Positions 2,975 to 37,960 of a DNA stretch of 64,000 nucleotides are shown in pieces (position 1 is the stretch's first letter; each line of letters starts with the position of its first letter). Source of the DNA: Thermoanaerobacterium sp. RBIITD. Its GTDB lineage: Bacteria > Bacillota > Thermoanaerobacteria > Thermoanaerobacterales > Thermoanaerobacteraceae. Location: assembly GCF_900205865.1 (NCBI RefSeq), contig NZ_LT906662.1, positions 1,302,001 through 1,366,000 of the forward strand, read 5' to 3'. Under the pieces are notes generated by a model, which was not told the DNA's origin, did not search any database, and saw only the letters and a program-made list of their open reading frames with translations. The position numbers were made by a program, and so were the translations under genes.

Positions 2975-3277
2975 TTAATTTGTTTTTATATTCTTAAATA
3001 ATTTTGAATAAAGTTTTATAAGAGAAATTAAAATAAAGTATACAATTAATATAGAAAGTAAAAATAAGTCAATTCTAAAATTTATTTTCGTTATATTATT
3101 AAGTGAAAATAGAAAAAGATTGTTTGCTGGTAAAGTATCATTATAAAACACTAGAAATTTTATAGGTAATCCTATAGTATGCGTAAAGTAATTATAATTC
3201 GAAAATTTATCAAAGAATATAGTCAAAAATACAATAATTGTAGAAATAATAAATAATTTCGTGTTTAAAACCTTCAT
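2975..3277 (-). CDS. Small two-helix membrane protein, unknown function
   Basis: This 100-aa protein has an N-terminal hydrophobic segment (residues about 8-22), an extracytoplasmic-looking stretch of about 45 residues with few charges, and a second hydrophobic segment (residues about 70-90) followed by a Lys-rich tail. A good ribosome site (AGGAG) lies 8 bases before the ATG. It lies downstream of the secreted protein at 3670-4371 on the same strand, separated by a decayed IS21. Small membrane proteins follow other secreted-protein genes in this window (27669-27794, 32129-32239), so it may be the original partner, for example for immunity or export. That role is inference; I do not recognise the family. 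Confidence 0.6.
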   Translation of the reverse strand: MKVLNTKLFIISTIIVFLTIFFDKFSNYNYFTHTIGLPIKFLVFYNDTLPANNLFLFSLNNITKINFRIDLFLLSILIVYFILISLIKLYSKLFKNIKTN

Positions 3278-3669: not shown

Positions 3670-4371
3670 CTATTGTATTCTAAGAGAGCAATTCCATTCA
3701 TCACGAACTTTTGCTCCGATGTCATATACTCCAATTTTAACTCCAAGAAGATAGTAGCCCTGTACTTTAATAAATGCAGTATCATTATAAGTATTTGTTT
3801 TTCCAATATTATATGATGCATTGGTTTGATACCAACTAGCTATATTCAGACCTGTACAATAAGAGTTTATATTATATACACCAACAAATTGTGGATAACT
3901 ATTAACAAATTTATATTTATAATTAAAGGCTACATTATCCCATGACGCTAAACCCATCAATCCTCCAGCATATGGAGACCACCAAGTAATTGTATATGAA
4001 TCATTATAGATTGTATCATCTAATGGAGTTAATAAATTTTTGTGATTAAATAAATTGTTAGTATTTTTTATCTTAGTAGTTAAATCAATTGTATTCATAA
4101 TCATGTTGTGCTGAGAATTTTTGATACTTTCTAAAAAGTTTTTTAGCTCATTCACATCCTTAAATTTTAAGGTTTTTAGATTAGAAGTATCCGACTCAAA
4201 AAAAGTTACATTATAATCTTTCTCAAGTTCTTTTAAGGAATTCATTATTTTAGCCTTATCTGTAATGGTATCCTTTGTATTTGTAATCACATTATTAGAT
4301 GCAAAAACTTGAGTACCCATTGTAAACAGCAAAACCATGCTTATTACGACTGCTAATACCTTTTTAAACAT
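3670..4371 (-). CDS. Secreted protein of unknown family (paralog set A)
   Basis: This 233-aa protein has a clear signal peptide (MFKKVLAVVISMVLLF, cleavage probably after QVFA near residue 24). A charged, helix-prone region (about 25-110) is followed by an aromatic, beta-rich C-terminal half (about 125-233) ending in YYLLGVKIGVYDIGAKV and DEW. The general plan of charged pro-region plus Tyr/Trp-rich tail with a YKYKF motif recurs in the proteins at 27810-28466 and 32245-33039. The ribosome site AGGAGAG precedes the ATG. A GAF-HTH regulator lies directly upstream with an inverted repeat between them. A bacteriocin-like or surface role is plausible but not shown. Confidence 0.75.
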   Translation of the reverse strand: MFKKVLAVVISMVLLFTMGTQVFASNNVITNTKDTITDKAKIMNSLKELEKDYNVTFFESDTSNLKTLKFKDVNELKNFLESIKNSQHNMIMNTIDLTTKIKNTNNLFNHKNLLTPLDDTIYNDSYTITWWSPYAGGLMGLASWDNVAFNYKYKFVNSYPQFVGVYNINSYCTGLNIASWYQTNASYNIGKTNTYNDTAFIKVQGYYLLGVKIGVYDIGAKVRDEWNCSLRIQ

Positions 4372-4469
4372 TTAAAAACCACTCTCCTAAAATTTTAATT
4401 AACAGGAATGGCGCCATTCATCTGTTTGATATAATTATAAACCCAAATCCAACATTTGGGAAGTTCCTA

Positions 4470-4515
4470 AAAAGTGCCATATTTTTGGTAAAATTAGTAA
4501 AACGATGGCACTTTT
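4470..4515 (-). promoter_or_regulatory. Inverted-repeat operator before the secreted-protein gene
   Basis: AAAAGTGCCAT (4470-4480) and ATGGCACTTTT (4505-4515) are exact reverse complements separated by 24 bases. With one extra A tolerated, the match extends outward to CTAAA on both sides. The repeat lies between the regulator stop at 4559 and the secreted gene starting at 4371, the place where the sister module carries its operator (33233-33252). It is probably the binding site of the GAF-HTH regulator. A ribosome-proximal promoter could be TTTATAAT near 4430-4440, but its -35 is poor. Confidence 0.55.
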
Positions 4516-4558
4516 AGTGACATACAAAACTTTAATAGTTATAAAAATTTTGTAATAT

Positions 4559-5380
4559 CTATAATAATATATTCCCATCAAGGTCTATAATACCAGCTTT
4601 TATAGCATTTATGACTATTCCTAAATCATTACTCGCTTTAAATAAAATATTAAGTTTGTTTAAATGTCTCTTTAATGTCCTTTCTGATATATTAATTTCA
4701 GGAATTATTAATTTTCTTTCATTATTACGTGCTAATGATGACAAAATTAATTTATCAGTATTATCAAGTTTCGATCCTATAGCTCTTAACACTTCACTTC
4801 TATGAGATATAGATTCTTCAATATAGCTTACTATATTTTTTAGTATAATACTTTGTTGCTTAATGTTTGGAATATTTATACGTGACATATCGAGATAAGC
4901 TATTATCTTTTCATAATAATAATCAACAATTGGTACTGCAGTACAATACCAGTCCTTAAATAAGTCGCAGTAATGGTCTTTGCCATATAATTCTGCCTGG
5001 CTGTTGTATTCCATAGCTACACTAATCGCATTTGTGCCGCAATCTTCAAGTCTTAAACTGTTACCTTCGGTAAAATCCAATTTGTTAAAATAATCTTTCA
5101 GTTGATCATTATATATAAGCTTGATTATGTAGCCATTTCTATCGCACAAAATGAAGAAATATCCTTTTTTAAGCAATAAGTTATATTTAAAGTTTTTATT
5201 GAAGAGGTTATCGAGCATTGAAATTAAAAAACTATTTTCCTTCTGCCGCTTTGTAAGTTCCTCATTGCAAAGCACTTTATCGAAAGTTCTTTTATTTGGA
5301 TTGATATTTATAAGCAATGATTCCCCATATAATATAGTTAATTCTGCACATCCTCTCTTGATAACAGTTTCACTGTTCAT
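4559..5380 (-). CDS. GAF-domain transcriptional regulator with C-terminal HTH
   Basis: This protein of about 273 aa resembles the sensory N-terminus of AcoR/DhaR-type activators but lacks the sigma-54 AAA+ domain. The GAF signature is EGNSLRLEDCGTNAISVAM (about residues 115-133), then KDHYCDLFKDWYCTAVPI and a stretch equivalent to the usual GVLD strand (IAYLDMS). The C-terminus (about 205-270) holds a helix-turn-helix (INISERTLKRHLNKLNILF). The ATG at 5380 is chosen because GGAGAG is 8 bases upstream; a GTG nine bases earlier is too close to it. Ligand unknown. It probably controls the adjacent secreted-protein gene; a frameshifted relative lies at 33258-34018. Confidence 0.75.
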   Translation of the reverse strand: MNSETVIKRGCAELTILYGESLLININPNKRTFDKVLCNEELTKRQKENSFLISMLDNLFNKNFKYNLLLKKGYFFILCDRNGYIIKLIYNDQLKDYFNKLDFTEGNSLRLEDCGTNAISVAMEYNSQAELYGKDHYCDLFKDWYCTAVPIVDYYYEKIIAYLDMSRINIPNIKQQSIILKNIVSYIEESISHRSEVLRAIGSKLDNTDKLILSSLARNNERKLIIPEINISERTLKRHLNKLNILFKASNDLGIVINAIKAGIIDLDGNILL

Positions 5381-5620
5381 AAATATCACTCTCCAAATAT
5401 TAATTTGTTATTTATCTATCATTTCATAATATATTTTCTACAAAAATATAGAAAATCCTTCTATGTTTTATTGTAATAAATATATTTTTCTACTTACACA
5501 GCTATACAAACCAATAGTTATCACTGAGGCACAGTCTTTGACACCGCCTATTATAACGTAATTGCTTAACCTTGTATAACAAACAAATAACTATCTTTTT
5601 ATATTATGTTAAAATTATTA

Positions 5621-5645: not shown

Positions 5646-5669
5646 ATATATATGAAAGGTGGGCAGGCG

Positions 5670-6200
5670 ATGGATGAAATCAAACTTATAAATGATGCCA
5701 AGTGCGGCAACAAATCTGCACTGAATGTATTAATAACCGAAAATTATAATATTGTTCTCGGATATTGTATAAAAATGACCGGAAACACATCACTTGCTCA
5801 AGATATCGCACAAGAAACAATGCTAAAGGCAGTATTGAATATTAATAAATTTAAACTAGATTTTAAATTTTCTTCATGGCTAGTGAAAATTGCTATAAAT
5901 ACTTACAGAGACTTTTTAAGGAAAAACAAATTAACAGACTCTATTGATGATATAGATTTACCTACTAAAAATAATTTTGAAAATGATGTTATTAATAAAA
6001 TTGATTATAAACAGGTAATGGAAATATTATTAAGCTTGCCATATGAAAAAAGAGCAATATTTATATTGAAACACTATTATGGATATAAATATGAAGAAAT
6101 TTCCAAAATAATGAATTGTCCGATTGGCACAGTCAGATCAAGGCTTCATTACTGTATCAAATATATATTAACTGAAATGGAGAGAAGGAAAATGATATGA
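5670..6200 (+). CDS. sigY: ECF RNA polymerase sigma factor, SigY type (copy 1)
   Basis: This extracytoplasmic-function sigma factor of 176 aa directs RNA polymerase to a small regulon that includes its own operon. Region 2 is visible as YCIKMTGNTSLAQDIAQETM...FKFSSWLVKIAINTYRDF, region 4 as LPYEKRAIFILKHYYGYKYE and a recognition helix CPIGTVRSRLHYCIKY. The start at 5670 (MDEIK) has AAAGGTGGG six bases upstream. The earlier in-frame ATG at 5652 falls at the predicted transcription start. It overlaps the next gene by 4 bases (ATGA). It is closely similar end to end to the sigma factor at 24437-24967, so the operon was duplicated. Confidence 0.9.
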   Translation: MDEIKLINDAKCGNKSALNVLITENYNIVLGYCIKMTGNTSLAQDIAQETMLKAVLNINKFKLDFKFSSWLVKIAINTYRDFLRKNKLTDSIDDIDLPTKNNFENDVINKIDYKQVMEILLSLPYEKRAIFILKHYYGYKYEEISKIMNCPIGTVRSRLHYCIKYILTEMERRKMI

Positions 6201-21114: not shown

Positions 21115-21726
21115 AAGCAACTATACTTTAAGGATACATAAGCATTCATCCCCATCACAAGTAAGGAAGATGAATGCTAAGCTACAGGTAATTTGTGATT
21201 TAGATCTTTCGCCACAACTTCTAATATCCTTTTTAGTTCCAATTCTATCTTTGTTGCACCTCCACTATACTGATGCTTTCTCTTTCAAGATCGATGATAT
21301 CATTTACAGCTTTCTCTTCATTGGCGTTATAACTTTTCCATCAGTACTATACCGTAATCCGACTCCCCGCATAACCATCCGACTTACTTTTGTTCTAAAC
21401 TTACAATAGCGAGTCCCATAAAGGATTGACAATACCACCAGAGTTTTCAAACGCTAATATTGTAAAGCATACCAAGTCCTATGATCATGAGGAAACATTA
21501 TTACTTTTGCCATCACGATTAATAATATTCTATCTTCTGCTGATTCAACAACACGAACTTTCCAAATTAGTTATTTCGGGACTGCAACACCTTCCGGCTT
21601 ATCATCACTTATACCTTAAGTCATACTCTTCATGTTACCATACATTACTTAAGGCTTAGTATCAGCTGCTGGCTAAACTTTACTGGACATTTGCACTCGC
21701 TTTAACGCCAGAACTTTGCTCAGCAT
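21115..21726 (-). mobile_element. Group II intron RNA, 5' domains without the ORF
   Basis: On the minus strand the sequence carries landmarks of bacterial group II intron RNA upstream of the intron ORF: GCTGAGCAAAGTTCTGGCG near the start, GGAAGGTGTTGCAGTCCCGA in the middle, and CGGGGAGTCGGATTACGG followed by TATAGTACTGATGGAA near the end. It ends at a GGGGATGAATGC that may be the former ORF start. The reverse transcriptase and 3' domains V/VI are absent here; an unrelated-position maturase fragment lies at 12990-13255. It lies just downstream of yxlG. Confidence 0.6.
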
Positions 21727-30319: not shown

Positions 30320-30539
30320 GTATATTTTTAACTGGAAAGGCTATAATTATCATTATGATACCTTTCTTGGGGAGGTAATTATTTTACCGCCCCATTATTT
30401 TTTTCTATAATTGTAGGCAAGATTAACCAATCTTATACATGAATACGAAAATTAATTAATTTTACATAACGGATAAGGTTAAATTATTTTGCTTTTTATG
30501 GTGCTTTTTATAATGAAATAATTTGCTGTATAACAATTT

Positions 30540-30760
30540 ACTGTATGGGGTTCGGGTAGTGTTGGACTTCGTTTTGTTTTGCAAACTCGTCCGCCCCAAT
30601 TCAGCCTCTTATCTGGTTTTTGTTCATCAGACCGAGATTTTGCCTACCGCTTCCTTCAGATTCCACCTCACGATGGACACCCTTGCTTTTGGCTAGTAGT
30701 TCCCGTGACCTCGCCCACAGCGGACTTTCACCGCCAAGTTATCGCCAATGCCGGGCGCAC
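30540..30760 (-). mobile_element. Group II intron RNA, 5' fragment (second intron type)
   Basis: On the minus strand the element begins GTGCGCCCGGC at 30760, the standard 5' end of many bacterial group II introns. GGTGAAAGTCCGCTGTGGGC, GGTGTCCATCGTGAGGTGG and AATCTGAAGGAAGC follow, all typical of domain I. The sequence breaks off near 30540; ORF and domains V/VI are missing. It is far more GC-rich than its neighbours, a sign of transfer. Confidence 0.7.
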
Positions 30761-32128: not shown

Positions 32129-32239
32129 TTAAGGAGATTTCCAATTGATGATAAAGACAAACGACAAAAACAAAAGATTTAAAACTAATACAACCAAAAT
32201 GATAGATAACAACCATTTGAAAAATTTATCCAAACCCAT
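32129..32239 (-). CDS. 36-aa membrane peptide after a secreted-protein gene, possibly frameshifted
   Basis: MGLDKFFKWLLSIILVVLVL continues with a single long helix and ends INWKSP. The start is 5 bases after the stop of the secreted-protein gene, with GAGGTGA as ribosome site. In the next frame the sequence stays open without stops to 32040 (EISLTRQFSGHTNDRNQVNY and so on, ending YYVLWN), so the original protein may have been about 66 aa. It parallels the 41-aa peptide at 27669; an immunity or accessory role is inferred. Confidence 0.55.
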   Translation of the reverse strand: MGLDKFFKWLLSIILVVLVLNLLFLSFVFIINWKSP

Positions 32240-32244
32240 TCACC

Positions 32245-33039
32245 TCAGTTCTTCCAGACATCGCCGTTTCGAGTAACACTTACTCTTAGATCAACATACT
32301 CATCTTGTACAACCAAACCATTCCCCTCATACTCTATGCCCCAGTGAAAATTACCTCTTGCATAAGCTCTGCAGTATTCTCCGTTATTTATAACTGTAGT
32401 ACCAGTTTCCCAGTTTGATACTTGCCAGGCTGAAAGGGTACCTCTTTCATAATAACCCCATAAACCTCCAGCATACCAAGCTTTACTTCCATCATAACCA
32501 AAATTTGCTTCAATATGAACGTGAAACAGTAAATTGCCTAATACTGCTCCATAGTAATAACGGTCATTTGAAGCAAATTTGTATTTAGGAGCATATGTTA
32601 GGGTTGAATTTTTGGTTTGATCATAAAGAGCAGACGAGAGAACCGGTCCGGACGTTAAAGTCTCCAAAGCAACAGTTCCATCATTATAAAAATATATGCT
32701 ATTTTGCTTATCGAGATAAACCACTTTTATGAGCGAAGGTTTTTCTACATTTTTGATATTAGAAAGTTTATTTTCACTCAAAAAATTTTCTAATGATGAT
32801 TTAACATTCTTTGACGAATGACTTTTAAGGTATTCGATCAATTTCTCATTTCTTAAACTTATTTCTTTCTTCATTTGTGCATCACTTATACTGGTTTGTT
32901 TATCGGCATTTGGAACTAATTGCACACCAGAATTTTCCTCAACTTTATCGGCAAAAACAGAACTAAAAGTCGAAACCGAAAGAATTGCAACAACAAGAAG
33001 CATTACAACTAATTTTTTAGCACTTAGATTCTTTTTCAC
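32245..33039 (-). CDS. Secreted protein of unknown family (paralog set A)
   Basis: This 264-aa protein has a signal peptide (KKLVVMLLVVAILSVSTFSS, cleavage about VFA-D), a charged pro-region with many Lys/Glu/Ser (about 30-130), and an aromatic C-terminal domain (about 140-264) with YAPKYKFASNDRYYYGAVLG, LLFHVHIEANFGYDG and GLWGYYERGTLSAW. The start is the GTG at 33039; the GTG nine bases earlier abuts AAGGAG. A consensus promoter with an operator lies upstream and a GAF/LuxR regulator, now frameshifted, before that. Best read as a secreted effector of unknown activity. Confidence 0.75.
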   Translation of the reverse strand: MKKNLSAKKLVVMLLVVAILSVSTFSSVFADKVEENSGVQLVPNADKQTSISDAQMKKEISLRNEKLIEYLKSHSSKNVKSSLENFLSENKLSNIKNVEKPSLIKVVYLDKQNSIYFYNDGTVALETLTSGPVLSSALYDQTKNSTLTYAPKYKFASNDRYYYGAVLGNLLFHVHIEANFGYDGSKAWYAGGLWGYYERGTLSAWQVSNWETGTTVINNGEYCRAYARGNFHWGIEYEGNGLVVQDEYVDLRVSVTRNGDVWKN

Positions 33040-33182
33040 ATTATACACTCCTTCTCAACCTATACATTTTTTAATTTAAAGTAGCAATTCAAGTTTTAAA
33101 TACCACCTCCATTTTTTATTCGCTCTGACACTTCTGCTGCTTTAAGTTATTCTGAAAAAATTGCCAGTCGATGTTTGATTTC

Positions 33183-33211
33183 ATTATATGTTTCTTCCAA
33201 AATTGTGTCAA
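33183..33211 (-). promoter_or_regulatory. Consensus sigma-A promoter of the secreted-protein gene
   Basis: On the minus strand TTGACA (33211-33206) and TATAAT (33188-33183) are both perfect and 17 bases apart. It drives the gene at 32245-33039. A half-site (GTACTAA on the plus strand at 33222-33228) and a full palindrome (33233-33252) lie just upstream. Confidence 0.85.
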
Positions 33212-33232
33212 CTGACCAAAAGTACTAATTTT

Positions 33233-33252
33233 TTTAGTACGAAAGTACTAAA
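33233..33252 (-). promoter_or_regulatory. TTTAGTAC-N4-GTACTAAA operator
   Basis: TTTAGTACGAAAGTACTAAA is an inverted repeat with perfect 8-bp arms. It lies 6 bases after the regulator stop codon and about 21 bases upstream of the -35. The same site with one arm base changed stands at 35270-35289 and 37941-37960. It is inferred to bind the GAF/LuxR regulator. Confidence 0.7.
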
Positions 33253-33257
33253 GCATA

Positions 33258-34018
33258 TTATATCAAGTCCATCTTTGCCGCTTTATATATACAGTCTTTT
33301 ACATTTTTCACGTTTAATATTTCAAAGATCTTATTCTTGTGATATTTTACATTGCTTATTGATCTATTAATCATTTTTGCAATCTCTTCATCTGTCTTTC
33401 CTTCCGCTGTCAGTTTCAAAATCTTTAGCTCTACTTCTTCCAATTTTTCCTCTATCATTTCCTTTTTAAGTAATATAAAATTGTATTCTGTATATTTTGC
33501 CATCAAAAACGCCGTAATCACACATTCATCAGTAAGTCCATTCATACATGAAATATCGATTACACCTATCAATTGCCTTTTATTGTCAAAGATAGGTACA
33601 GCTATGCAGTCTATCTCTCTGAGGCACTTAAGATAATGTTCATTCTTTTTGACAAATGCAATTTCTCTTTCATTTAAAACAATCGATACTGCATTTATTC
33701 CTGTAAATTCTTCTTTCAATGGAACACCTATATTTAAATTAGAAAAACTACTTTTGTTAGCACAATCAAATCTATTATTACGCCATTTTCGTCTGTCAAT
33801 AGACATGTATAACTTTTAAATTCGCCATTAATCTTAGATATTTCATGAATGCTTTTTCTAAAGGCTTTAATTAGCAACTTTTTCTCATCGGAAATATAAA
33901 GATCTGATACAAACATAAACGGTTTTGCGTCTTGATGAAGTCCCCTTCTTGTACATCTTCTCCATGCTTCATCAAACAAATGTTTATGAGTATCATATTT
34001 TATAACTTCATACTCCAT
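33258..34018 (-). pseudogene. GAF-domain/LuxR-type regulator with one frameshift
   Basis: From the ATG at 34018 (GGGAGA upstream) the frame gives MEYEVIKYDTHKHLFDEAWR to LLTDENGVIID, then must shift near 33770-33790 to continue as CANKSSFSNLNIGVPLKEEF, TGINAVSIVLNE, IAVPIFDNKRQLIGVIDIS and a LuxR-type HTH (ILKLTAEGKTDEEIAKMINR, SISNVKYHKNKIFEILNV). Rejoined it is about 253 aa, the same plan as 4559-5380. A single-base indel explains the break; sequencing error or true inactivation are both possible. It lies directly upstream of the secreted-protein gene. Confidence 0.8.
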
Positions 34019-34279: not shown

Positions 34280-34846
34280 TTATTCAATTTTATTCTCAAC
34301 ATTATTAATATAGTTCGCCATAAAAGATACTTTTCTAATTCCTCTTTGAATTATAAAGCCCAATATTAATCCAATAATATTCAATATAACATCATTAACA
34401 TCAGATGTATGATTGGGATACTTTGTTAAATAATCAATAGTAAATTGAGCAATTTCTATAAATACTGAAACACACAAACCCACTAATAACGTATAATTAA
34501 ATTTATTCATATTTCTATATATTATCGGTACAAAAAAGCCAAACAGAATAAAAAGTATAATATTCCCAACCACATTTTTTATAACTATATTAATTGGTTG
34601 TGATCTCATAAGAATTATTATATCTTTCATAGGAACAATATTTACATTTGGAACATAATTGGGCATAGGTGGATAAAATGTGATCGGGAAAAACACTATA
34701 CTTATTAGTTCAATTGCGTATATAATAAACCCTGTCATAAATGTGGCTATAACAATATTTTTTGTCGACTTAAATTCTTTTATAATAAGAGGAATGAAAA
34801 AAATAAACAAAATAACTTTTAATCCTATCGGAAAATTTATCCCCAA
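34280..34846 (-). CDS. VanZ-family membrane protein
   Basis: This 188-aa protein has about five membrane helices. The VanZ pattern shows in NVVGNIILFILFGFFVPI, then SVFIEIAQFTIDYL and the acidic end TSDVNDVILNIIGLILGF. VanZ proteins give low-level glycopeptide (teicoplanin) resistance in enterococci and occur widely with cell-wall and peptide-antibiotic genes. It lies downstream of a tiny secreted peptide gene (34934) under the shared operator promoter, so an immunity role is a reasonable inference. Confidence 0.8.
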   Translation of the reverse strand: MGINFPIGLKVILFIFFIPLIIKEFKSTKNIVIATFMTGFIIYAIELISIVFFPITFYPPMPNYVPNVNIVPMKDIIILMRSQPINIVIKNVVGNIILFILFGFFVPIIYRNMNKFNYTLLVGLCVSVFIEIAQFTIDYLTKYPNHTSDVNDVILNIIGLILGFIIQRGIRKVSFMANYINNVENKIE

Positions 34847-34933: not shown

Positions 34934-35083
34934 TTAATTTAAATATGCATTGCCATTTGAACCTGAGTTAAAATCATATTCCATTGATTTTTCATATGCA
35001 AATACTTGGCTGCATAATATTAATACTATCAATACTGAAATCAACTCCGAAGCAAACTTTTTATTATTAAAAATATTTATCAT
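34934..35083 (-). CDS. 49-aa secreted peptide precursor
   Basis: The precursor starts MINIFNNKKFASELISVLIV and has a textbook signal peptide ending CSQVFA, leaving a 20-residue mature peptide that begins YEKSMEYDFN and ends GNAYLN. AAGGAGAGAAG precedes the ATG (a second ATG seven bases earlier is out of frame and gives only seven codons). A consensus promoter and a TTTAATAC/GTACTAAA operator lie upstream (35221-35289). It may be a signalling or bacteriocin-like peptide, or the truncated head of a larger paralog; both remain open. Confidence 0.6.
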   Translation of the reverse strand: MINIFNNKKFASELISVLIVLILCSQVFAYEKSMEYDFNSGSNGNAYLN

Positions 35084-35191
35084 AGTACATCTTCTCTCCT
35101 TATACATTATTTTTATTCTTAATAATATCTTTACTATTGTACATTAGTATTTTTACATCTTTTAAAGCTCATCAATCCAATTCTTACATCT

Positions 35192-35249: not shown

Positions 35250-35269
35250 TTGACCAAAAGTACTAATTT

Positions 35270-35289
35270 TTTAATACGAAAGTACTAAA
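35270..35289 (-). promoter_or_regulatory. TTTAATAC-N4-GTACTAAA operator
   Basis: The right arm GTACTAAA is exact and the left arm has one change relative to 33233-33252. A half-site GTACTAA lies at 35260-35266. Homology with the 37.9-kb copy continues beyond the operator to about 35345, which in that copy is the promoter region of the ERCC4-type gene. Confidence 0.7.
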
Positions 35290-35465: not shown

Positions 35466-36073
35466 AAAGATTATAGAGGGAGTAAAATACAACGGAAATA
35501 AGATGTTAAGAGACATAAAAAGACCAGAGAAGATTAGGAATGCTGCATAAATTGCACCGCAGTGGTGATGATACACCGCAGTCTCTCGTCAGTCAAGGGC
35601 AAGAACCACGTCTCAGCTTTGCTGCGTTTCACTTCACAAAGCTGACCCTTGACAGCCTCGCTCCTGCGATGGTTTGGATAATTAAGCGGTGCCAAAAATA
35701 AAGTAAATAAAGTCTTAAAACTCAATTTAAAAGATTCGAAGATTGACAAAGAGAGCCGGAATTGTCAGGTTGGTAATTTCACCATAAGGGCTTAAGACCC
35801 AGCAAGGGAGCATAACTGACATCCACCTCATGTAAGGCAGAACGAAGGAATTAAGGACAAAGATCCTGTGAGACATGGGAGGGTATGCCACATGAGCTTA
35901 AGTGGAATCCATAGGCCAAAATATGGGAAAAACAATAGAAGCTTATTTGGGTCACCTATCACATGTAAAATTAATGAATAAATAGTATTAATATACATGA
36001 GGGCTCCTTTGGAGATCATGAAAATCTGAGAATGAGTGAGATATTAAAAGAAAATCAAAGATTATAGAGGGAG
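35466..36073. repeat. 575-bp unassigned segment between 17-bp direct repeats
   Basis: AAAGATTATAGAGGGAG stands at 35466-35482 and again at 36057-36073. The enclosed sequence is richer in GC than its surroundings, with blocks such as GCACCGCAGTGGTGATGATA and GACATGGGAGGGTATGCC, and has no gene with a ribosome site. It may be an inserted element or structured RNA with a target duplication, or the result of a partial duplication. The second repeat supplies the ribosome site of the lipoprotein at 36086. Confidence 0.5.
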
Positions 36074-37246: not shown

Positions 37247-37822
37247 TTAAAAAACTCCCCAATCTATAATATATTTTAGACCAAGCCCTATTCCTTTTGC
37301 AATGCTATAAGGTACACCCAATCCATTCAAAAAAACCGTTACTTGATCTTCAATCGCTTGAAGTGCCAAATCTTCCCATGTAGAAAGCTCATCCAATTTA
37401 TTTGCAATCTTGATAGAATATTTTCTTAGATATTTTGCAGCTTCTTTATTAATATAAGTTTCCATCCATTCAGCTATTTTATCTATTGCACTTGATCTTA
37501 ACATTCCAGCAATTCTTTTTACAGATAGTTTTAAAGCTTTACCTTTTAAACCTTGTGGTTTAATAGTGCCACTTTCTTCTACACTTGTGTCCTTTTTTTG
37601 TGCATATTTTGCAGTCATTGATCCATTCTCGACTTTTTGTTTGTCAATTGGATCATTTTCAATAGTTGTATATACTCTGTTGTCATTAATTGATTTCTTT
37701 AAATTTGTATCATTGAACGTTGGATTAGCAGCATAAACTGAACTCAAAGTTGAAATTGAAAGAAGTGCTACAACTAAAAACAATGAAACGAATTTTTTCA
37801 AAGTTAAAAACCGTTTTATCAT
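37247..37822 (-). CDS. Secreted helical protein of unknown function
   Basis: This 191-aa protein has a signal peptide (KKFVSLFLVVALLSISTLSS, cleavage about VYAA-N) with the same leader style as 32245 and 27810. The mature part has a charged linker to about residue 95, then amphipathic helices (IAGMLRSSAIDKIAEWMETY, KYLRKYSIKIANKLDELSTW) and a hydrophobic Gly-rich end (GLGVPYSIAKGIGLGLKYII). The end resembles membrane-active bacteriocins in composition only. It is driven by a promoter with the shared operator (37891-37960). Confidence 0.7.
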   Translation of the reverse strand: MIKRFLTLKKFVSLFLVVALLSISTLSSVYAANPTFNDTNLKKSINDNRVYTTIENDPIDKQKVENGSMTAKYAQKKDTSVEESGTIKPQGLKGKALKLSVKRIAGMLRSSAIDKIAEWMETYINKEAAKYLRKYSIKIANKLDELSTWEDLALQAIEDQVTVFLNGLGVPYSIAKGIGLGLKYIIDWGVF

Positions 37823-37919: not shown

Positions 37920-37940
37920 TTGACCAAAAGTACTAATTTT

Positions 37941-37960
37941 TTTAATACGAAAGTACTAAA
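37941..37960 (-). promoter_or_regulatory. TTTAATAC-N4-GTACTAAA operator
   Basis: This is the same inverted repeat as at 35270-35289, 21 bases upstream of the -35, with a half-site at 37930-37936. It lies between divergent genes (secreted protein and ERCC4-type protein), so it might affect both. Confidence 0.7.

What the first reader, a model, noticed from the sequence alone, without database searches (positions are those of the whole stretch)
3670..5380. GAF-HTH regulator plus secreted protein as a repeated two-gene module
A GAF-domain regulator without the usual sigma-54 AAA+ domain lies directly upstream of a signal-peptide protein at 4559/3670 and again (frameshifted) at 33258/32245. In both an inverted repeat sits between the stop of the regulator and the gene. 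The two repeats differ in sequence (AAAGTGCCAT here, TTTAGTAC there), as expected for insulated paralogous circuits. A ligand-sensing switch for an exported effector is a plausible, undescribed system.
Basis: partly seen in the sequence, partly recalled or inferred. Interest (0 to 1): 0.7.

Follow-up and report, generated by a model that had tools for sequence, protein, structure and literature searches.

The report
Privately switched secreted-toxin (bacteriocin) cassettes
A heat-loving bacterium carries about twenty copies of a small gene switch, each class with its own DNA address, and most sit beside a different secreted protein that is probably a weapon against rival bacteria, sometimes with a membrane protein that may protect the producer.

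Summary
Window 4559-5389(-) encodes a 276-aa regulator with a DhaR-like GAF domain and a LuxR/GerE-type HTH, and no AAA+ domain. An inverted repeat (4470-4515), a promoter and a signal-peptide gene (S1, 3670-4371) follow it. A second, frameshifted copy (33258-34018; S2 32245-33048) has a different repeat. The genome (Thermoanaerobacterium) has about 20 loci of this family, many decayed. Signal-peptide genes follow them more often than other genes (34/88 vs 86/699, p=7e-9). Operator boxes are conserved per HTH class and are followed by unrelated cargo. Cargo recognised by curated models is mostly antibacterial: geobacillin-26 family (3e-57), a lactococcin-972 operon, Ntox44, radical-SAM peptide clusters. 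S1 also occurs on small Enterococcus plasmids and in prophages without the regulator, beside the same kind of 2-TM protein that lies downstream here (2975-3277). S2 occurs in SPbeta-like phages. Best reading: a one-component activator switches on a Sec-secreted bacteriocin-like toxin, with membrane immunity in some cassettes, through a private operator. Toxicity, immunity, cue and activation (versus repression) are inferred. It is a new variant of known bacteriocin regulation; S1 and S2 look like undescribed bacteriocin families.

The parts
4559..5389 (-). R1: regulator, DhaR-like GAF + LuxR/GerE-type HTH, 276 aa, no AAA+
4470..4515 (.). inverted repeat, candidate private operator of R1; unique in the genome
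4434..4462 (-). candidate promoter of S1 (TTCCCA-17-TATAAT; weak -35, as in activator-dependent promoters)
3670..4371 (-). S1: 233-aa Sec-secreted protein, candidate bacteriocin; homologues on Enterococcus plasmids and in prophages
2975..3277 (-). I1: 100-aa 2-TM protein, candidate immunity protein for S1; partner conserved beside S1 homologues in regulator-free contexts
33258..33806 (-). R2, C-terminal frame: rest of GAF plus LuxR HTH
33734..34018 (-). R2, N-terminal frame; frameshifted relative to the rest, single frame in relatives
33213..33252 (.). TTAGTAC-type repeat, candidate operator of R2
33183..33211 (-). candidate promoter of S2 (TTGACA-17-TATAAT, 12 of 12)
32245..33048 (-). S2: 267-aa Sec-secreted protein, candidate bacteriocin; homologues in SPbeta-like phages and Bacillus plasmids
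32129..32239 (-). 36-aa one-TM ORF directly after S2; weak candidate for immunity
37921..37959 (.). second copy of the R2-type box, no regulator upstream
37247..37822 (-). 191-aa signal-peptide protein behind that box
35251..35288 (.). third copy of the R2-type box (one base shorter), no regulator upstream
34934..35107 (-). 57-aa signal-peptide ORF behind the third box (short, perhaps truncated), followed by a 188-aa multi-TM protein at 34280-34846

Best explanation
Each locus is a self-contained antagonism cassette: regulator, operator, promoter, secreted toxin and, in several, a small membrane protein. The regulator is a one-component DNA-binding protein. Its DhaR-type GAF domain senses a still unknown cue and its LuxR-type HTH binds the inverted repeat between its own stop codon and the promoter of the next gene. 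The repeat ends against the -35 region, the position used by LuxR-type activators, so binding most likely switches the cargo on. In this window the cargo is a Sec-secreted bacteriocin-like protein (S1, S2); S1 comes with a 2-TM membrane protein that most likely protects the producer. The regulator/operator half has multiplied into classes that do not share operators, while the cargo half is exchanged freely. SHOWN: architecture, multiplication, class-specific boxes, cargo exchange, known bacteriocins among the cargo, conservation of the S1/2-TM pair in regulator-free contexts. INFERRED: operator binding, activation, killing, immunity, the cue.
For: Regulator fold. About 20 loci in this genome and recurrence in relatives. 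Signal-peptide gene within 350 nt of 34/88 regulators vs 86/699 other gene ends, p=7e-9. Class-specific boxes: class-4 box 6 copies, all right after class-4 regulators or their remnants, none in the control; class-12 box 6 copies, 4 after class-12 regulators and 2 before other secreted-type ORFs; R1 box unique. Box and promoter 71-94% conserved within classes 12 and 4 while cargo falls to about 30%. Cargo: geobacillin-26 family directly under a class-4 regulator of this genome, proven bacteriocin family (PMC13176240); lactococcin-972 operon; Ntox44; radical-SAM peptide clusters. S1 plus 2-TM partner in Thermoanaerobacterium under two regulator classes, on Enterococcus plasmids and in prophages. 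A 2-TM partner homologue without the toxin in a relative.
Against: No expression, binding or killing data. S1 and S2 match no known toxin family. One distant S1 homologue lacks the 2-TM partner. Many regulators are not followed by a signal-peptide gene (54/88; some have RiPP clusters, others are decayed or unclear). The 2-TM homology between Thermoanaerobacterium and Enterococcus is weak by pairwise BLAST (2e-4). The R2 promoter is a perfect consensus, which would also fit repression. Some cargo look like wall hydrolases or lipoproteins.
Confidence: 0.65

Rival explanations
1. The secreted proteins are signals or surface/wall proteins, not weapons: each regulator senses its own processed product or a wall-derived cue and forms a private quorum-type circuit.
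For: LuxR-type HTH; foldwise the regulator also resembles quorum receptors, though far more weakly than DhaR; some cargo carry peptidoglycan-binding or SpoIID domains.
Against: Cargo with curated names is mostly bacteriocin or toxin. The S1/2-TM pair persists on plasmids and in prophages without the regulator, which a signal for this regulator would not explain.
Confidence: 0.15
2. The inverted repeats are transcription terminators of the regulator genes, not operators.
For: Repeats lie right after stop codons; the R1 repeat ends in a T-run; repeat length is hardly above that at other gene ends.
Against: The terminator scan marks neither repeat; the one terminator-like hit near R1 lies in the promoter spacer. 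Repeats form sequence classes that follow the HTH class across genomes, and copies occur before cargo with no regulator upstream.
Confidence: 0.08
3. Same cassette, opposite sign: the regulator is a repressor that is relieved by a cue, for example damage by a rival.
For: The R2/S2 promoter has perfect -35 and -10 hexamers, unusual for an activated promoter; the boxes touch the -35.
Against: S1 and class-12 promoters have poor -35 hexamers, as expected for activation; the box lies upstream of, not across, the promoter.
Confidence: 0.2
4. The linkage is only descent: duplicated segments and IS activity spread a neutral gene pair and no functional link exists.
For: Many copies are decayed; IS elements and transposases lie near; promoters share ancestry.
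Against: Cargo is unrelated between loci while the box stays conserved; the same cargo pair sits under two regulator classes; the regulator family recurs beside bacteriocin operons in other genera.
Confidence: 0.07

Closest known systems
DhaR, regulator of the dihydroxyacetone kinase operon (E. coli)
   Same: N-terminal sensor region including the GAF domain: structural match Z 22.5 over 210 residues
   Different: DhaR has a sigma-54 AAA+ domain (general knowledge); here a LuxR/GerE-type HTH is attached directly
LuxR/NarL-type regulators (GerE, DegU, VraR; LuxR-type quorum receptors)
   Same: C-terminal HTH; dyad box against the -35
   Different: DhaR-type GAF sensor instead of receiver or autoinducer domain; no known autoinducer
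Geobacillin 26 / alicyclobacillin 24 (class III bacteriocins)
   Same: Sec-secreted, about 25 kDa, from thermophiles; one cassette of this genome encodes a family member (PMC13176240)
   Different: S1 and S2 are not members by HMM; the paper's main text contains neither the word immunity nor LuxR
Lactococcin 972 operon
   Same: A member with its membrane protein and ABC ATPase lies under a class-1 regulator in a relative
   Different: S1 and S2 lack the domain and the ABC partner
SdpC/SdpI of Bacillus subtilis (from memory)
   Same: Secreted protein toxin with a small membrane immunity protein
   Different: No sequence match found; different regulator; many private copies

Membership tests
DhaR/AcoR-type sigma-54 activators | DhaR-like N-terminal GAF region | tested here: met
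DhaR/AcoR-type sigma-54 activators | central AAA+ sigma-54 interaction domain | tested here: not met
   no AAA+ match in 276 aa; the model has only the sensor region and HTH
LuxR/NarL-type HTH regulators | C-terminal GerE-type HTH | tested here: met
   profile and fold matches; Pfam GerE 6e-8 for R2
Geobacillin-26 family | NF035925 match of S1 or S2 | tested here: not met
   no match for S1/S2; another cassette cargo, L025:17589-18350, does match
Lactococcin 972 family | PF09683/TIGR01653 domain plus TIGR01654 and TIGR03608 partners | tested here: not met
   not for S1/S2; met for the L129 cassette by PF09683, TIGR01654 and TIGR03608
Sec-secreted bacteriocin with cognate immunity (S1) | signal peptide and no catalytic housekeeping domain | tested here: met
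   own crude signal-peptide predictor; no domain match
Sec-secreted bacteriocin with cognate immunity (S1) | small membrane partner conserved beside the toxin | tested here: met
   four of four plasmids read and three prophages, plus two cassettes here; absent in L191
Sec-secreted bacteriocin with cognate immunity (S1) | antibacterial activity, and protection by the partner | not testable with these tools
   needs a killing assay

The most novel reading that the evidence does not exclude
Thermoanaerobacteraceae run a genome-wide arsenal in which one regulator type (DhaR-GAF + LuxR HTH) has diversified into many non-cross-talking regulator/operator addresses onto which toxin/immunity cargo is swapped; S1 and S2 are founding members of new Sec-secreted bacteriocin families that also travel on plasmids and phages.
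Probability: 0.5. Interest if true: 0.75.

Novelty: new variant of a known kind. Interest (0 to 1): 0.6.

Why it matters
If true, the regulator and its operator boxes become a handle for finding bacteriocins that no sequence model recognises, since the cargo shares almost no mature sequence. It offers several new bacteriocin candidates from thermophiles, some with candidate immunity genes, and a natural set of diversified one-component switches in which HTH/operator specificity can be compared. It also raises a testable question: what cue do DhaR-type GAF domains sense when they control weapons?

Tried and rejected
The AlphaFold2 model of S1 is poor (pLDDT 54, four sequences), so no fold search was made with it. 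Inverted-repeat length as evidence: significant against shuffles, not against other gene ends. Regulator on plasmids or viral contigs: only one distant sigma-54-type hit on a large Enterococcus replicon, none in viral contigs. Geobacillin-26 cargo on plasmids: none. S1 in the phage collection: none, although prophage contigs have it. Literature: no paper found linking GAF/LuxR regulators to lactococcin 972 or to Thermoanaerobacterium bacteriocins; the library is open-access only. Most cargo matches no curated family. Clustering that included signal peptides gave a false large family; with the first 30 residues removed, 18 cargos of this genome share only two homologous pairs plus one weak match at E 0.007.

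Full report
WHAT WAS CHECKED. R1 (4559-5389, minus) is 276 aa. Single-sequence searches see only fragments of its domains: a DhaR match at 1e-10 and a weak HTH. A profile of ten paralogues matches DhaR at residues 79-170 and LuxR/NarL HTH at 198-268. A confident AlphaFold2 model (pLDDT 84) matches DhaR(N) with Z 22.5 over 210 residues and GerE-type HTH with Z about 10. The second regulator is split into two overlapping frames (33734-34018 and 33258-33806); orthologues in relatives are in one frame, so it is probably broken in this genome.

THE REPEATS. The repeat at 4470-4515 (22-nt arms, 82% complementary) and the TTTAGTAC repeat at 33233-33252 are confirmed. By length alone they are not outstanding against other gene ends. 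What stands out is where the boxes occur. The class-4 box (core ACTATACAAAGATATAGT) has six copies in 3.4 Mb, each directly after a class-4 regulator or its remnant, none in the control. The class-12 box (core GTGCCGAATTTCGG) has six copies: four after class-12 regulators or remnants, and two before other cargo ORFs with no regulator, one with a signal peptide and one called lipoprotein-like by my predictor. The R1 box is unique. The TTAGTAC box occurs three times, all in this window, each before a signal-peptide ORF. Within HTH classes 12 and 4 the first 100 nt after the stop are 71-94% conserved between loci; inside the cargo this falls to about 30%. Boxes end against the -35 region, the usual place for LuxR-type activators (general knowledge).

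A FAMILY, NOT A PAIR. In this genome R1 matches 35 stretches at about 20 loci, many decayed. Of 61 genomes searched, 29 have matches; the other species of the genus have up to 15 matching stretches each, and Thermoanaerobacter-type genomes several. Named loci come from Thermoanaerobacterium saccharolyticum, T. butyriciformans, Thermosediminibacter, Caldanaerobacter and others. Signal-peptide genes start within 350 nt of 34 of 88 regulators, against 86 of 699 other gene ends in the same stretches (p=7e-9; the signal-peptide predictor is my own crude one). In this genome alone it is 11 of 20 against 8 of 44 (p=0.007). Eighteen cargos of this genome, with the first 30 residues removed, show two homologous pairs and one weak match.

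WHAT THE CARGO IS. Most mature sequences match no curated family. Those that do are mostly antibacterial. A geobacillin-26 family protein lies directly under a class-4 regulator of this genome (193.6 bits, cut-off 40), with a 59-aa 2-TM gene 14 nt after it whose 71% identical homologue in a relative stands without that toxin. A lactococcin-972 bacteriocin with its membrane protein and ABC ATPase lies under a class-1 regulator. An Ntox44 protein lies behind a class-4 regulator, with a transposase between. Radical-SAM peptide clusters follow others. Geobacillin-26 proteins are experimentally shown class III bacteriocins (PMC13176240). A few cargos look like wall hydrolases or proteases.

S1 AND S2. 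S1 has one paralogue here (52%) under a different regulator class, and both are followed by homologous 2-TM proteins (57%). S1 homologues (34-37%) are on five small Enterococcus plasmids; in the four that I read, a 105-aa 2-TM ORF starts about 26 nt after them. In three prophage contigs the S1 homologue lies beside a divergently oriented 107-aa 2-TM gene that I1 matches at E about 3e-8. The pair thus persists outside the regulator's reach, the pattern expected of toxin and immunity. One distant homologue (L191) lacks the partner. S2 homologues are in SPbeta-like phages and Bacillus plasmids; in the two plasmids read a 64-71-aa 2-TM ORF follows. The 36-aa ORF after S2 here is a weaker case.

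MECHANISM. Most likely: cue, then GAF, then LuxR HTH on the private dyad, then activation from just upstream of the -35, then secreted toxin, with membrane immunity where present. Shown: anatomy, multiplication, class-specific boxes, exchange of cargo, identity of some cargo, conservation of the S1 pair. Inferred: binding, direction of control, cue, killing, protection. Regulator genes share an upstream element, TGTAAC-N16-TGTY-(T)TATATTATG (21 of 75 regulators against about 0.014 expected per region; in this genome the four best hits and three weaker ones lie at this family), which hints at one shared input above the private outputs. Reading it as an ECF-sigma promoter is a guess, and shared descent is not excluded.

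NOVELTY. Bacteriocins with dedicated regulators are known. The DhaR-GAF/LuxR one-component architecture in this role, the number of privately addressed copies, and S1/S2 as bacteriocin families were not found in the papers searched (open-access only). I rate it a new variant of a known kind.

Noticed in passing
upstream of regulators, e.g. G000:C1:770486, 775009, 825096, 3334705: Shared element TGTAAC-N16-TGTY-(T)TATATTATG before regulators of several classes (21 of 75); possibly one ECF-type or other common input for the cassettes.
   Followed up: partly
window 5652-6200 (+): A SigY-type ECF sigma factor (NF007216, above cut-off) is divergent to R1; no link to R1 was tested.
   Followed up: no
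L113 and L122 (relatives), under class-10 regulators: Cargo of 222 aa with a hydrophobic C-terminus, followed by an M48-like membrane peptidase and a 4-TM protein: possibly a processed peptide toxin.
   Followed up: no
L191:1030-1869 and L192:3696-4316: Signal-peptide proteins with a central hydrophobic segment and a distinct soluble C-terminal part, one followed closely by a 225-aa soluble ORF; they look like toxin/immunity pairs but match no model.
   Followed up: partly
window 30518-30677 (-) and 21475-21699 (-): Two group II intron matches (RF02001, RF02005).
   Followed up: no
window near 35836 (+); also L035, L109, L138, L139: A repeated stretch (GCAGAACGAAGGAATTAAGGACAAAGATCCTG...) occurs here and behind some class-4 regulators; not identified.
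   Followed up: no
G000:C1 first and last 6.8 kb: The two contig ends share much sequence (5462 of 6791 positions identical ungapped; decayed regulator plus IS21 copy), perhaps an unclosed circular overlap or a repeat.
   Followed up: no
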